The notes under the pieces are model-generated. The model was not told the origin of the DNA, searched no databases, and saw only the letters and a program-made list of their open reading frames with translations. The translations under genes were made by a program, and so were the position numbers. From IMG/VR virus record IMGVR_UViG_3300010373_000001, positions 1 to 64,000 of that record: a stretch of 64,000 bases of DNA; one strand, given 5' to 3'. This DNA is from a virus. This document shows, one piece after another, positions 1 through 25,390 of this stretch; the first letter of the stretch is position 1, and each line of letters begins with the position of its first letter.

Positions 1-87
1 AAGATTCCAGATCTCCTGATCTGGCATCTCTTCATTATCCTCGTTCTCACTCATGGGTATGTAGAGAACTGGAACTTCTTTACTCAT
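1..87 (-). CDS. Partial acidic hypothetical protein, N-terminus only
   Basis: An open frame runs from an ATG at 85-87 leftward out of the window. A strong ribosome site (AGGAGGGAAG on the minus strand, 91-100) sits just upstream and fixes the start. The 29 visible residues begin MSKEVPVLYIP and then turn very acidic (SENEDNEEMPDQE). No family can be named from so little. The hairpin at 106-142 separates it from the gene to its right, so it may be the first gene of another transcription unit. Confidence 0.6.
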   Translation of the reverse strand, partial: MSKEVPVLYIPMSENEDNEEMPDQEIWNL

Positions 88-105
88 CTTCTTCCCTCCT
101 AAGAT

Positions 106-142
106 GGATACAGCCCGGCTAGAATCTAGCCGGGCTGTATCC
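106..142 (-). terminator. Perfect 18-bp inverted repeat, probable terminator
   Basis: Two 18-base arms (GGATACAGCCCGGCTAGA and its complement) flank a single central base. The repeat lies between the stop of the gene ending at 150 and the ribosome site of the gene starting at 87. Its position fits transcription termination. Neither strand has a strong T-run after the stem, so it may be partial, act in both directions, or serve as an mRNA processing or stability stem. Confidence 0.6.
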
Positions 143-551: not shown

Positions 552-799
552 GACGGTGAGTCTAGCACAGCCGGGCCACCGATGTCAACAGAAACATTTC
601 CAGCGTGAGCGATTACCTCAGGCTCTTCCACAACTATTTCTCCCTCGCCATAGCAAGTTTCGCAGTCATAGATTTCGTCCCGGTCAAGTCCGGTTCCTTT
701 GCAATCTGGGCATTCAGTAGTTTCCGCGTCGTTCCATGCTGTGTATGCCTCTGAGTAGTTGCTAAGTACAGAACTTACAGCAGATGTGTTAACCGACAA
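524..799 (-). CDS. Small protein with DnaJ-type zinc-binding motifs
   Basis: The 91-residue protein has two CxxCxGxG motifs, CPDCKGTG at residues 30-37 and CETCYGEG at 46-53. These are the knuckles of the DnaJ central zinc domain, here without a J domain. Small proteins of this kind are common in phages and may bind one zinc; their role is unknown. The only available start is TTG at 799, with GAGG six bases upstream, overlapping the end of the upstream gene by 11 bases. Confidence 0.65.
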   Translation of the reverse strand: MSVNTSAVSSVLSNYSEAYTAWNDAETTECPDCKGTGLDRDEIYDCETCYGEGEIVVEEPEVIAHAGNVSVDIGGPAVLDSPSWARTQEDT

Positions 800-3590: not shown

Positions 3591-4111
3591 TAATCTTCTC
3601 CTGGCTGCTTGTCGTACATGTGAGCAGCTTTTCTCTTCTTCTGCATTACGATGCTGTGTACCGGGCAGAACTGGCAAAGGAAAGTACTCGGCCTCTCGCT
3701 CTTACTGGTACTCATACCTTCTGCTTTACGATCACCCTTAGTGTCAGGGTATAGACGCATCTTATCTGTCATGTAATCGCCGCAGTCAGATGTCTTACTG
3801 TGCCTCTTCCAGCACTGCATAGCGTCTAGCTGGTAGTTATCCTTGACATCATAGAATGTCTGACCAAACCCTGTTCCCTCGCCGGGCGGTCTTGTGTGCT
3901 GGGCTACTTCATTAAGAATGCCCTCACGGTAAGTTTTCTTGTCCCAGTCAGCTTTCTTGACTGTGGCCAGATTACCGATATGGTTCTCATGACCAGCTAA
4001 CCTGTGATTCAGGGTGTCATCAAACTCTGGCGGTCCCTCATACATAGGCAGTTCAAATACTGCCCCATCAGTGTGACAGATCAGAATCCTGATCTTCTCT
4101 TCTGTACTCAT
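3590..4111 (-). CDS. Conserved hypothetical with Cys/His motifs
   Basis: The 173-residue protein has a small beta-rich N-terminal region and a C-terminal half with conserved-looking Cys and His: CWKRHSKTSDCGDY and later LCQFCPVHS. These may bind a metal. The PDTKGDR and CQFCPVHSIVMQK segments resemble an unnamed protein seen in actinophages. It is coupled to its neighbours by ATGA (4108-4111) and TAATG (3590) overlaps. No function can be assigned. Confidence 0.6.
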   Translation of the reverse strand: MSTEEKIRILICHTDGAVFELPMYEGPPEFDDTLNHRLAGHENHIGNLATVKKADWDKKTYREGILNEVAQHTRPPGEGTGFGQTFYDVKDNYQLDAMQCWKRHSKTSDCGDYMTDKMRLYPDTKGDRKAEGMSTSKSERPSTFLCQFCPVHSIVMQKKRKAAHMYDKQPGED

Positions 4112-4687: not shown

Positions 4688-5092
4688 TCAGAAGGTTGTA
4701 CCCCAGATATCCTTCATTTCCCCGGCAAGCTTCTCCTCGATCTGCTTGACCCAGGTATGTGCTTCCTCTACCTTTTGCTTGAGGACGATAATCTCATGAT
4801 CAACAGCGTCATCAACCTTAGATGACATGTTAGCTGCCCTCTGACGGGCTACCACAAGTAGCCTCTTAGCTGCATCTTCTGCAATGATAGCATCGTCGTG
4901 CAGCTTGCGCAAGTCTTCTACGGAAAGATTCTCAAGTTTCTTGGCCTCTGGACTGTGGACTACCTTAGCCACTTCTTCCTCAGCCGCATGAGCTACTTTC
5001 TCAACTTCGTCAACAACTTCCTTTTCGACAGCTTCAACCTCAGTTACGATCTTTGAGTGAGCTTTAGGTGCTGCTGGTTTCCTTGGTGCCAT
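4688..5092 (-). CDS. Coiled-coil protein next to the holin candidate
   Basis: The 134-residue protein has a Pro/Lys/Ala-rich start (MAPRKPAAPKA), then long Glu/Lys/Val heptad-like helices (VEAVEKEVVDEVEKVAH) and a C-terminal Lys/Glu helix. It is almost certainly a coiled coil. I chose ATG 5092, in a TAATG overlap with the upstream stop and after AGGG, over an ATG at 5107 with no ribosome site. It could assist lysis or be a minor virion protein; neither can be shown. Confidence 0.55.
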   Translation of the reverse strand: MAPRKPAAPKAHSKIVTEVEAVEKEVVDEVEKVAHAAEEEVAKVVHSPEAKKLENLSVEDLRKLHDDAIIAEDAAKRLLVVARQRAANMSSKVDDAVDHEIIVLKQKVEEAHTWVKQIEEKLAGEMKDIWGTTF

Positions 5093-10818: not shown

Positions 10819-11235
10819 TTAGCTCAGTTTAGCAGCCCACTTCCACCATTCTTTCCTGGGCGGGCCGACTGCTTCCATTTCAGGGAACCTTACAGCAATT
10901 CCCTTTTTAAATGCATACTCACAGCAATCTCTTGTGCCGCGAGAGCTATCCACCGGGAAGCCTAGCACAAGATCAGCACCGCTGTCAACCATTTCGTGAT
11001 TACGAATCGGACCAGCCGCTCTACCGTGCTGATTCCAGTCCGCAATAAATCTTCGGAAGTTAGCCCGCGTAGCTTCCGCGTACATATAGGCGAAGAGATC
11101 GGCCCCCGTTGGGCAGTCCCCGAATTTTAGCATCAGAAGCAGCGGCGGTACTCCAAGATCATTGATCGCATCAAATATCAGTTCCCAGTCATAGTAGTCT
11201 CTGGAACCTGTGATGATAACTGTAGAAGAGTACAT
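10819..11235 (-). CDS. DUF2493/SLOG-family nucleotide-binding-like protein
   Basis: The 138-residue Rossmann-like protein matches the DUF2493 (YspA-type SLOG) pattern: VIITGSRDY at the N-terminus, FGDCPTGADLFA near the middle, AGPIRNHEMVDSGADLVLGFP, and SRGTRDCCEYAFKKGI. SLOG proteins bind nucleotides or nucleotide-derived signals; phage members are uncharacterised. It starts one base past the preceding stop and is co-transcribed with recombination genes. Its ligand cannot be read from the sequence. Confidence 0.7.
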   Translation of the reverse strand: MYSSTVIITGSRDYYDWELIFDAINDLGVPPLLLMLKFGDCPTGADLFAYMYAEATRANFRRFIADWNQHGRAAGPIRNHEMVDSGADLVLGFPVDSSRGTRDCCEYAFKKGIAVRFPEMEAVGPPRKEWWKWAAKLS

Positions 11236-24149: not shown

Positions 24150-24697
24150 GTATTGCTCCTGCTTTTAAACTCTTCCAGCTTAAACTTAAGATCCTGCTCC
24201 GTGTACTTCGCTGTAATTATTCTCATTGCCTCAGTTTCCTCGGGAGTCCTTCTTGCTGCCTGAATCTCCCGTTCCTGCTGTTTAACTCTCACCCCCGTCC
24301 TGACGAGTTCTTCCAAGCCCATTTTGTCCAGCACCCACTGCAAGCAGTAATCGAATCTGTCTGCTGAGCAGAGATGATTGATCGTGTAGTTGCCGTGTGT
24401 ATCCCACCAGAACAAGATGATCATCTGCTCAAGGATATCTATCCATGTGTCAGGATATTTTACCCGCACGCCTGACTCGTTGATGCGGTAGTTAAGTTCC
24501 GTGTAAAGAATAGGCCGCCCGGCAACAGGCATCCTGTCTGTCTCAGCTTCCTGCTCAAAATAGATAGCAAGATGCCAGACATCAAAGTCTACACCATCGG
24601 GCGGCTTGTCTCTGTCATACAGTTTCCTGTTGCCGTTTACGTCTGAGTACCTTGTCTCAGCCGGTCCTTCCTTACGGAGCTTAGATTTAACTCCCAC
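24146..24697 (-). CDS. Hypothetical protein upstream of the helicase
   Basis: The 183-residue protein is rich in Trp and charged residues, with DVWHLAIYFEQEAETDR, YPDTWIDILEQMIILFWWDTHGNY and a long C-terminal helix (RTPEETEAMRIITAKYTEQ). It overlaps helicase by four bases, which suggests coupled translation and perhaps a helicase-loader or replisome role; there is no motif to prove that. Confidence 0.5.
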   Translation of the reverse strand: MGVKSKLRKEGPAETRYSDVNGNRKLYDRDKPPDGVDFDVWHLAIYFEQEAETDRMPVAGRPILYTELNYRINESGVRVKYPDTWIDILEQMIILFWWDTHGNYTINHLCSADRFDYCLQWVLDKMGLEELVRTGVRVKQQEREIQAARRTPEETEAMRIITAKYTEQDLKFKLEEFKSRSNT

Positions 24698-25122
24698 TAA
24701 AAAGCTCCTAACTGATTAGGGTCAGTGAGGTACACTCCCTTACCTCCGTACTTAAATGCATGACCAATCTCGGGATCATAAATCCTGGCAATCCTGGGGA
24801 GATACGATGACTCCCTGGCGAGTCTGTCGGGAGTGCTTGACCACACTGAATAGACAGGCACGTTCTCGAAATCAAATCTCTCTGATATTCTCAGTGCCGC
24901 ATCGTCATACTCAGTGCCGTGCCCCATCCATGTGCATATCTCCAGATTGAATCCTTTATTCCACACCAGATCAAGGAACTTTGACAGGTACGGTCTGCTC
25001 AATTGGAACAGATCGACTGCCTCCCACCATCTGTTTCTTGACACAGCCTTATTGTAATCCTTGAGCTTATCTTCTGGCAAGAGGCCCACTGAGCCCTCAA
25101 AAACGATGACAATACTGGGCAT
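24697..25122 (-). CDS. HAD-like protein lacking catalytic aspartates
   Basis: The 141-residue protein begins SIVIVFEGSVGLLP, where active HAD phosphatases have DxDG, and ends RIYDPEIGHAFKYGGKGVYLTDPNQLGAF. Helices and strands between fit a small HAD Rossmann fold, but the nucleophile is absent. I chose ATG 25122, following AGG and just after the stop of a 21-codon leader frame; an ATG at 25152 has no ribosome site. The leader and its ribosome-site hairpin suggest controlled translation, and the plus-strand RNA candidate is antisense to it. Confidence 0.55.
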   Translation of the reverse strand: MPSIVIVFEGSVGLLPEDKLKDYNKAVSRNRWWEAVDLFQLSRPYLSKFLDLVWNKGFNLEICTWMGHGTEYDDAALRISERFDFENVPVYSVWSSTPDRLARESSYLPRIARIYDPEIGHAFKYGGKGVYLTDPNQLGAF

Positions 25123-25129
25123 TACCTGA

Positions 25130-25195
25130 TTAGATAAATTTCCATGCTGCATATACTTGACAAGCTTTCGTATCGTGTGCTAACATATGAAACAT
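25130..25195 (-). CDS. Possible 21-residue leader peptide
   Basis: A short frame (MFHMLAHDTKACQ... ending WKFI) begins eight bases after a very strong AGGAGGGAG ribosome site in the loop of a hairpin, and ends eight bases before the ATG of the next gene. It may be a real leader that couples translation, or the ribosome site may serve a start I do not see. No other start fits as well. Confidence 0.4.
   Translation of the reverse strand: MFHMLAHDTKACQVYAAWKFI
25157..25186 (+). promoter_or_regulatory. Plus-strand sigma70-type promoter
   Basis: A perfect TTGACA (25157-25162) is followed 18 bases later by TAACAT (25181-25186), which keeps the key T, A and final T of the -10 box. It is the only convincing promoter I found that faces the plus strand and points at the hairpins and terminator at 25197-25280. 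Confidence 0.5.
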
Positions 25196-25280
25196 ACGCG
25201 ATGCTCCCTCCTCATCGCGGCTGTAATGACAAGGACCGGGTTAAGTTGAGTTTATCTCCTTCCCGGTCCTTGTTTATTTT
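25193..25280 (+). ncRNA. Candidate antisense small RNA with CU-rich loops
   Basis: Between the plus-strand promoter and a U-tailed terminator lies an ~88-base unit with no gene on the plus strand. Hairpin 1 (25197-25219) is a perfect 7-bp CGCGATG/CATCGCG stem with loop CTCCCTCCT. Hairpin 2 (25229-25273) is a 12-bp stem whose 21-base loop contains TCTCCTT. Both loops resemble anti-Shine-Dalgarno sequence. It is also antisense to the 5' leader of the minus-strand HAD-like gene, and its loop 1 would pair with that gene's own ribosome-site loop. Expression is untested. Confidence 0.45.
25229..25280 (+). terminator. Intrinsic terminator with U-tail on the plus strand
   Basis: The 12-bp arms ACAAGGACCGGG (25229-25240) and CCCGGTCCTTGT (25262-25273) are followed on the plus strand by TTATTTT. 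The matching tail on the minus strand (CATTACAG) is poor, so the element is directional for plus-strand transcription. It directly abuts the stop of the small membrane protein gene. Confidence 0.65.
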
Positions 25281-25390
25281 CTCAGAAGTATAGTCGCCCA
25301 TAATATGAACAGTATGACTATAATTACTGCCAGCTCCCCTACTACGATGGGCATCAGCCTGGCAATCTGATACGTCTGCTCTGCTGTCAT
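25274..25390 (-). CDS. 38-residue single-span membrane protein
   Basis: A tiny frame begins MTAEQTYQIARLM, continues with one strong hydrophobic span (VVGELAVIIVILFILWATILL) and ends RK. The ATG overlaps the upstream stop by four bases (ATGA), the same coupling seen in undoubted neighbours. One-span phage peptides can act as lysis, exclusion or signalling factors; the role here is unknown. Confidence 0.6.
   Translation of the reverse strand: MTAEQTYQIARLMPIVVGELAVIIVILFILWATILLRK

What the first reader, a model, noticed from the sequence alone, without database searches (positions are those of the whole stretch)
25157..25280. Candidate phage antisense small RNA with two anti-Shine-Dalgarno loops
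The sequence shows a plus-strand promoter (TTGACA, 18 bases, TAACAT) followed by two perfect hairpins and a U-rich tail that exists only on the plus strand. All protein genes here are on the minus strand, and this unit fills the only noncoding gap between two tiny minus-strand frames. The hairpin loops read CTCCCTCCT and ...TCTCCTT, complementary to ribosome sites. Loop 1 also mirrors the AGGAGGGAG loop in front of the leader/HAD-like gene, which would permit a kissing-loop antisense contact. C-rich loops that block ribosome sites are known for several small RNAs in Gram-positive bacteria; a phage-encoded one of this layout would be new to me. Any hairpin has a mirror on the other strand, so direction rests on the promoter and the U-tail.
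Basis: partly seen in the sequence, partly recalled or inferred. Interest (0 to 1): 0.75.

Follow-up and report, generated by a model that had tools for sequence, protein, structure and literature searches.

The report
Conserved phage antisense small RNA
Between two gene blocks of an uncultivated phage, and at the same place in three related phages, lies a ~90-base RNA gene on the strand opposite to the neighbouring genes; it has its own promoter, an unchanging loop that matches ribosome-binding sites, and a terminator, so it probably blocks translation of selected messages.

Summary
Three relatives, found through DnaB or HAD proteins and not through the RNA, carry the same element at the same site. 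In two of them (HAD 43% identical) the promoter TTGACA-N12/13-TGTGN-TANNNT, the 9-nt loop CUCCCUCCU and the second-loop motif AGUUGAGU are identical, while the stems are rewritten: 14 of 19 pairs changed on both sides and 98% of cells stayed paired. A covariance model from these three finds the element in the held-out fourth phage (E about 1e-4) and nowhere else searched. In one relative, hairpin 1 is a 16-bp stem with five G-U pairs on this strand only; the opposite strand does not form it. The promoter motif occurs 8 times in the 115.6-kb genome (0 in the reversed control).
Not supported: loop 2 as a second anti-Shine-Dalgarno loop (not conserved), and the kissing-loop argument (the 'mirror' loop is the same DNA read backwards). 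No Rfam family matches. Most likely mechanism: the exposed C-rich loop pairs with Shine-Dalgarno sequences, like actinobacterial 6C/B11 RNAs, but it is not a member of 6C. Targets, and transcription itself, remain unproven.

The parts
25157..25162 (+). -35 element TTGACA
   Evidence: identical in L023 and L024 at the same place
25176..25186 (+). extended -10 element TGTG-C-TAACAT
   Evidence: TGTGNTANNNT shared with L023 (TGTGTTACTAT) and L024 (TGTGATAGAGT) and with seven other sites in this genome
25192..25283 (+). predicted small RNA, about 90 nt (start about 6 nt after the -10, at the first base of hairpin 1)
   Evidence: inferred; hairpin 1 begins 5-7 nt after the -10 in window, L023 and L024
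25197..25219 (+). hairpin 1, 7-bp core stem with 9-nt loop
   Evidence: 7/7 pairs kept in L023 and L024, 5 of them with changes on both sides
25204..25212 (+). loop 1 CTCCCTCCT, extended anti-Shine-Dalgarno sequence
   Evidence: identical in L023 and L024, CCCCCTCCT in L014
25229..25273 (+). hairpin 2, 12-bp stem of an intrinsic terminator
   Evidence: 9 of 12 pairs with changes on both sides
25244..25251 (+). conserved motif AGTTGAGT in loop 2
   Evidence: identical in L023 and L024, GTTGAG in L014
25274..25283 (+). U-rich tail TTTATTTTCT, antisense to the stop codon of the 38-aa ORF
   Evidence: 8 of 10 T against 2 of 10 on the minus strand
25130..25195 (-). 21-codon ORF MFHMLAHDTKACQVYAAWKFI overlapping the HAD start; carries the sRNA promoter on its other strand
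   Evidence: not conserved as a protein in the relatives apart from the promoter-bearing stretch
24697..25152 (-). HAD-like gene (151 aa), first conserved gene next to the sRNA and possible cis target
   Evidence: homologues in Streptomyces phages and IMG/VR phages; predicted fold nearest to HAD phosphatases, weakly
25274..25390 (-). 38-aa single-helix membrane peptide ORF upstream in the sense direction
   Evidence: similar 43-aa ORF at the same place in L023

Best explanation
The element is a phage small-RNA gene read from the + strand, opposite to the neighbouring genes. The phage's own type of promoter (TTGACA-N12/13-TGTGN-TANNNT) starts an RNA of about 90 nt at the first base of hairpin 1. 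Hairpin 1 displays a fixed 9-nt single-stranded loop, CUCCCUCCU. Hairpin 2 with the U-rich tail ends the transcript and displays a second fixed motif, AGUUGAGU. The RNA most likely acts by pairing loop 1 with Shine-Dalgarno sequences of the AGGAGG(GAG) type, keeping ribosomes off. Targets would be chosen phage and/or host messages in trans, and the overlapping leader/HAD message in cis. Shown: presence, conserved promoter, conserved loops, covarying stems, strand. Inferred: transcription, exact ends, SD pairing, targets.
For: Relatives were found by protein, not by the RNA: L023 and L024 through DnaB, L014 through HAD. Same promoter, loops and order upstream of HAD in L023 and L024. The promoter motif has 8 hits in the genome with 0 in the reversed control, and it is the only hit in each of the two 17-kb relatives; the other seven read towards same-strand genes or the tRNA cluster. 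A covariance model from the window alone finds L024 (E 9e-11) and L023 (E 8e-6) on this strand. Over three sequences 98.2% of cells are paired and 14/19 pairs have double changes; structures slid by 1-3 columns give at most 58%. The model finds held-out L014 with loop CCCCCUCCU (E 9e-5) and nothing else in 362 kb. Strand: L024 hairpin 1 has 16 pairs incl. 5 G-U on this strand (-15.7 kcal/mol); the other strand does not form it (-5.0). Loop 1 reaches -10 kcal/mol or better with the region upstream of 38 of 201 called genes, against a mean of 20 for shuffled loops. C-rich loops that block ribosome-binding sites are established for mycobacterial B11/6C RNA (PMC10470900).
Against: No transcript data. 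L014 lacks a recognisable -35 box. Tails in the three relatives are only moderately U-rich (5 of 10). No perfect 9-nt partner of either loop exists in the window apart from the locus itself, and AGGAGGG is not enriched among AGGAGG sites (13 of 56), so no specific target stands out. One shuffled loop did as well as the real one in the target count (max 38). The host and its messages are unknown. The pair count was made on an alignment fitted to the structure.
Confidence: 0.62

Rival explanations
1. Cis-only antisense RNA: it regulates just the overlapping sense message (small membrane ORF, leader ORF, HAD-like gene), through full complementarity or convergent transcription, with no trans targets.
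For: It lies antisense to the gap in front of HAD, and its promoter lies inside the leader ORF. The only perfect complements of both loops in the window are at the locus. It stays linked to HAD in all four phages, even in L014 where the cassette is inverted against its neighbours.
Against: A cis antisense RNA is complementary to its target whatever its sequence, so nothing would hold loop 1 and AGUUGAGU fixed while the stems change completely. In L023 the downstream gene has its own SD, about 50 nt away from loop 1.
Confidence: 0.18
2. The conserved loops bind a protein (or a ribosomal component), so the RNA works as a decoy or scaffold and not by pairing with messages.
For: Two fixed loops (9 and 8 nt) on free stems look like binding sites; the second motif, AGUUGAGU, has no evident pairing role. 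No enriched pairing target was found.
Against: Loop 1 is an extended copy of the 16S anti-SD core CCUCC, the form used by known C-rich sRNAs (PMC10470900), which is an odd coincidence for a protein site.
Confidence: 0.13
3. Sense-strand (minus) mRNA leader: hairpin 2 ends or protects the upstream message, and hairpin 1 presents the AGGAGGGAG ribosome site of a short leader ORF coupled to HAD; the + strand promoter is incidental.
For: In the window AGGAGGGAG stands 8 nt before the ATG of a 21-codon ORF overlapping the HAD start. Both hairpins also fold on the minus strand in the window and L023. In L023 and L024 a sense copy of CUCCCUCCU in hairpin 2 could mask the SD.
Against: L024 does not form hairpin 1 on the sense strand. 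No start codon at a normal distance in L024; in L023 only a TTG inside the stem, and the 73-aa gene there has its own SD. A sense leader does not explain the conserved + strand promoter, AGUUGAGU, or the U-tail side.
Confidence: 0.05
4. DNA-level feature or chance: inverted repeats as protein-binding or replication sites, with the promoter match accidental.
For: Perfect inverted repeats exist on DNA too.
Against: Five G-U pairs in one relative's stem favour RNA. Free covariation with fixed loops and a fixed promoter in independent genomes excludes chance.
Confidence: 0.02

Closest known systems
6C RNA / B11 sRNA of Actinobacteria (Mycobacterium, Streptomyces)
   Same: Short RNA of two stem-loops; cytosine-rich loop meant to pair with ribosome-binding sites of several messages without a known chaperone (PMC10470900, PMC8388888). 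The nearest named phages infect Streptomyces, so an actinobacterial host is plausible.
   Different: Only loop 1 is C-rich here and its six C are interrupted by U; loop 2 carries AGUUGAGU. No Rfam match to 6C or any family. Encoded by phages, antisense to a gene border.
C-rich-loop sRNAs of Staphylococcus aureus (RNAIII, RsaE-type; from own knowledge)
   Same: C-rich hairpin loops that occlude Shine-Dalgarno sequences.
   Different: Bacterial, different structures and motif (UCCC), no sequence relation.
c4 RNA of phages P1 and P7, sar RNA of P22, OOP RNA of lambda
   Same: Phage-encoded small RNAs that act on messages; c4 pairs from loops around a ribosome-binding site (PMC12197685).
   Different: Known ones belong to temperate enterobacterial phages and have one specific target each; unrelated sequence and context.
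Non-coding RNAs of actinophages (mycobacteriophages D29 and Kampy, Rhodococcus phage WC1)
   Same: Highly expressed phage non-coding RNAs in actinobacterial hosts (PMC10986025).
   Different: Located at genome ends or the middle, of unknown function; no anti-SD loop was reported in the text read, and there is no sequence link that could be tested here.

Membership tests
6C RNA (actinobacterial) | two stem-loops, each loop with six or more cytosines | tested here: not met
   loop 1 CUCCCUCCU has six C, interrupted; loop 2 is AGUUGAGU-rich with few C
6C RNA (actinobacterial) | match to a known Rfam covariance model | tested here: not met
   no family at gathering score in 64 kb; 6C not among matches up to E 10
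6C RNA (actinobacterial) | C-rich loop pairs with ribosome-binding sites | not testable with these tools
   complementarity only
Phage-encoded small RNA gene | own promoter in the right place | tested here: met
   TTGACA-N12/13-TGTGN-TANNNT in window, L023, L024; 0 in reversed control; not recognisable in L014
Phage-encoded small RNA gene | intrinsic terminator on the same strand | tested here: met
   hairpin 2 with more T on this strand in all four, strongly only in the window
Phage-encoded small RNA gene | conserved, covarying structure | tested here: met
   14/19 pairs changed on both sides; model finds held-out L014
Phage-encoded small RNA gene | transcript detected | not testable with these tools
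   no RNA data for this uncultivated phage
Cis-antisense RNA | lies opposite a transcribed message and alters it | tested here: inconclusive
   position met; effect not testable

The most novel reading that the evidence does not exclude
A new family of RNA genes in 110-115-kb phages whose fixed loop imitates an extended 16S anti-Shine-Dalgarno sequence and so reshapes translation broadly during infection (host and early phage messages), with AGUUGAGU as a second contact.
Probability: 0.25. Interest if true: 0.8.

Novelty: new variant of a known kind. Interest (0 to 1): 0.6.

Why it matters
Regulatory RNAs of non-enteric phages are known mainly as unexplained transcripts. Here one can be defined from sequence alone: promoter, start, two fixed loops, terminator and conserved position. 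If it blocks ribosome sites, phages have independently arrived at the same solution as 6C/B11 and the staphylococcal C-rich RNAs, and the fixed loop gives a direct, simple test of phage control of translation.

Tried and rejected
Rfam: nothing at gathering score, only chance-level weak matches. DNA similarity in named phages: none. Scan of IMG/VR for CTCCCTCCT-N26..36-AGTTGAGT: 22 hits; only L023 and L024 have the hairpins, the promoter and the context, the other 20 contigs are chance. An exact loop scan gave two unrelated contigs. Five named Streptomyces phages (BRock type) and G005-G009 carry HAD but not the RNA. Genome contigs gave no relative with the locus. Small peptide on the + strand: the frames through loop 1 (MLPPHRGC... 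in the window) have no start codon in L023 or L014 and no SD, so rejected (read from sequence). Sense-leader reading rejected mainly on L024. Trans targets: the best RBS matches in the genome are at 115587, 72388, 10812, 73220 and 87456 on the minus strand, but with no enrichment over other AGGAGG sites, so none is claimed.

Full report
What was checked. The window is bases 1-64000 of a 115,610-base IMG/VR virus record. The described parts are real: TTGACA-18-TAACAT at 25157-25186, a 7-bp hairpin with loop CTCCCTCCT (25197-25219), a 12-bp hairpin (25229-25273) and a tail with 8 T in 10. The 104-nt stretch folds far better than shuffles (z = -5.3), and 12-bp perfect stems occur at only four places in 64 kb. 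All major genes here are on the minus strand. The element sits at the border between the tail-gene block and a replication block (HAD-like, DnaB helicase, primase, DNA helicase, DNA polymerase).

Relatives were found without using the RNA. Protein searches with HAD and DnaB alignments gave Streptomyces phages of the BRock type, more distant IMG/VR phages, and three nearer ones: L014 (record G004, HAD 32%), L023 (G001, DnaB 59%, HAD 43%) and L024 (G002, HAD 43%). In L023 and L024 the gap upstream of HAD holds the same element.

What is conserved. On the strand opposite to HAD: the promoter (window TTGACAAGCTTTCGTATCGTGTGCTAACAT, L023 TTGACAACCTCCTGTTACGTGTGTTACTAT, L024 TTGACATCTGCCGGGGTCTGTGATAGAGT), then hairpin 1 with the identical loop CTCCCTCCT, then hairpin 2 with AGTTGAGT in its loop, then a T-richer tail that overlaps the stop codon of the upstream gene in all four phages. 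The stems differ almost completely: CGCGATG/CATCGCG, TGTACAAAGTT/AACTTTGTACA, and a 16-bp stem in L024. On the model-fitted alignment 98.2% of cells pair and 14 of 19 pairs change on both sides; sliding the partner by 1-3 columns drops pairing to 45-58%. Caveat: three sequences, on an alignment fitted to this structure. However, a model from the window alone finds the other two with E 9e-11 and 8e-6, and the three-sequence model finds L014, which was not used, at 4859-4936 on the strand opposite to HAD with loop CCCCCUCCU (E 9e-5), and nothing else in 362 kb or in the other records searched (best other E 0.8).

Strand. Three things break the tie. (1) The promoter motif TTGACA-N11..14-TGTGNTANNNT occurs 8 times in the genome, 0 times in the reversed control and 0.00 times expected in the window by shuffling. 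Seven of the eight read towards same-strand genes or the tRNA cluster; the eighth is this one. In G001 and G002 the only hit is the sRNA promoter. (2) In L024 hairpin 1 has 11 Watson-Crick and 5 G-U pairs on this strand (-15.7 kcal/mol); on the other strand those five become A-C mismatches and the hairpin is not formed (-5.0). (3) The base of hairpin 1 begins 5-7 nt after the -10 box in all three, where a transcript should start, although the stems differ in length. L014 is the weak point: it has a -10-like TATACT upstream but no clear -35.

How it probably works. A constant loop on changing stems means the loop contacts something that does not change with the locus. Loop 1 is an extended anti-Shine-Dalgarno sequence, and its pairing energy with regions upstream of called phage genes is high (38 of 201 genes at -10 kcal/mol or better; shuffled loops average 20, best shuffle 38). 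This fits blocking of ribosome sites, as shown for mycobacterial B11 (PMC10470900). The best phage sites are minus-strand RBSs at 115587, 72388, 10812 and 73220, but there is no enrichment over other AGGAGG sites, and host messages are unknown, so no target is claimed. The second constant motif, AGUUGAGU, has no explanation; it may be a second contact. In L023 and L024 the 5' arm of hairpin 2 (AGGAGGGGG, AGGAGGGAG) is complementary to loop 1 of the same RNA, which could make the RNA self-limiting; this is not seen in the window.

Loop 2 as a second anti-SD loop is not upheld: the matching bases are CTCCTT in the window but GTCCTC, ATCCTAG and CTATTC in the relatives. The kissing-loop argument is circular, since AGGAGGGAG in front of the leader ORF is the complement of loop 1 itself.

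Comparison with the known. It works most like 6C/B11 RNA but fails membership (second loop not C-rich, no model match). As a phage RNA it is comparable with c4 RNA of P1/P7, which pairs from loops around an RBS (PMC12197685). Actinophage non-coding RNAs of unknown function are on record (PMC10986025). In the literature held (open-licence papers) I found no phage RNA with this layout; that is not proof of absence. I call it a new RNA family and a new variant of a known kind.

Scores. That a + strand small-RNA gene exists here: about 0.88. That loop 1 acts by pairing with Shine-Dalgarno sequences, given that it exists: about 0.65-0.7. Combined about 0.62.

Noticed in passing
window 1-123 and record end 115488-115610: The record has a 123-bp direct terminal repeat, so the contig is probably a complete genome of about 115.5 kb.
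   Followed up: partly
record 68.6-88.5 kb (L062, L063): About 33 tRNA genes, close to a full set, in one cluster on the minus strand, with the same promoter motif just upstream of a tRNA at 76836-76864.
   Followed up: partly
L014 3735-5450: In this relative the cassette 311-aa gene / 65-aa gene / sRNA / HAD is inverted relative to the tail and DnaB genes on both sides, yet the sRNA stays with HAD; divergent promoter-like sites stand at 3652-3733.
   Followed up: partly
L023 6137-6169, L024 5743-5776: Hairpin 2 of the sRNA carries AGGAGGGGG/AGGAGGGAG, complementary to its own loop 1: a possible internal switch or self-block.
   Followed up: partly
window 24697-25152: The HAD-like protein lacks the usual DxD (VFEG instead); its predicted fold (pLDDT 89) is nearest to HAD phosphatases and the T4 polynucleotide kinase phosphatase domain, but only weakly (E above 0.01).
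   Followed up: partly
window 559-588, 10959-10988; record 73250, 76836, 80481, 93480, 114105: A phage promoter consensus TTGACA-N11..14-TGTGNTANNNT could be used to map the transcription units of this genome.
   Followed up: partly
window 106-142: A 17-bp perfect hairpin GGATACAGCCCGGCTAG-AAT-CTAGCCGGGCTGTATCC near the terminal repeat, upstream of an AGGAGGG ribosome site.
   Followed up: no
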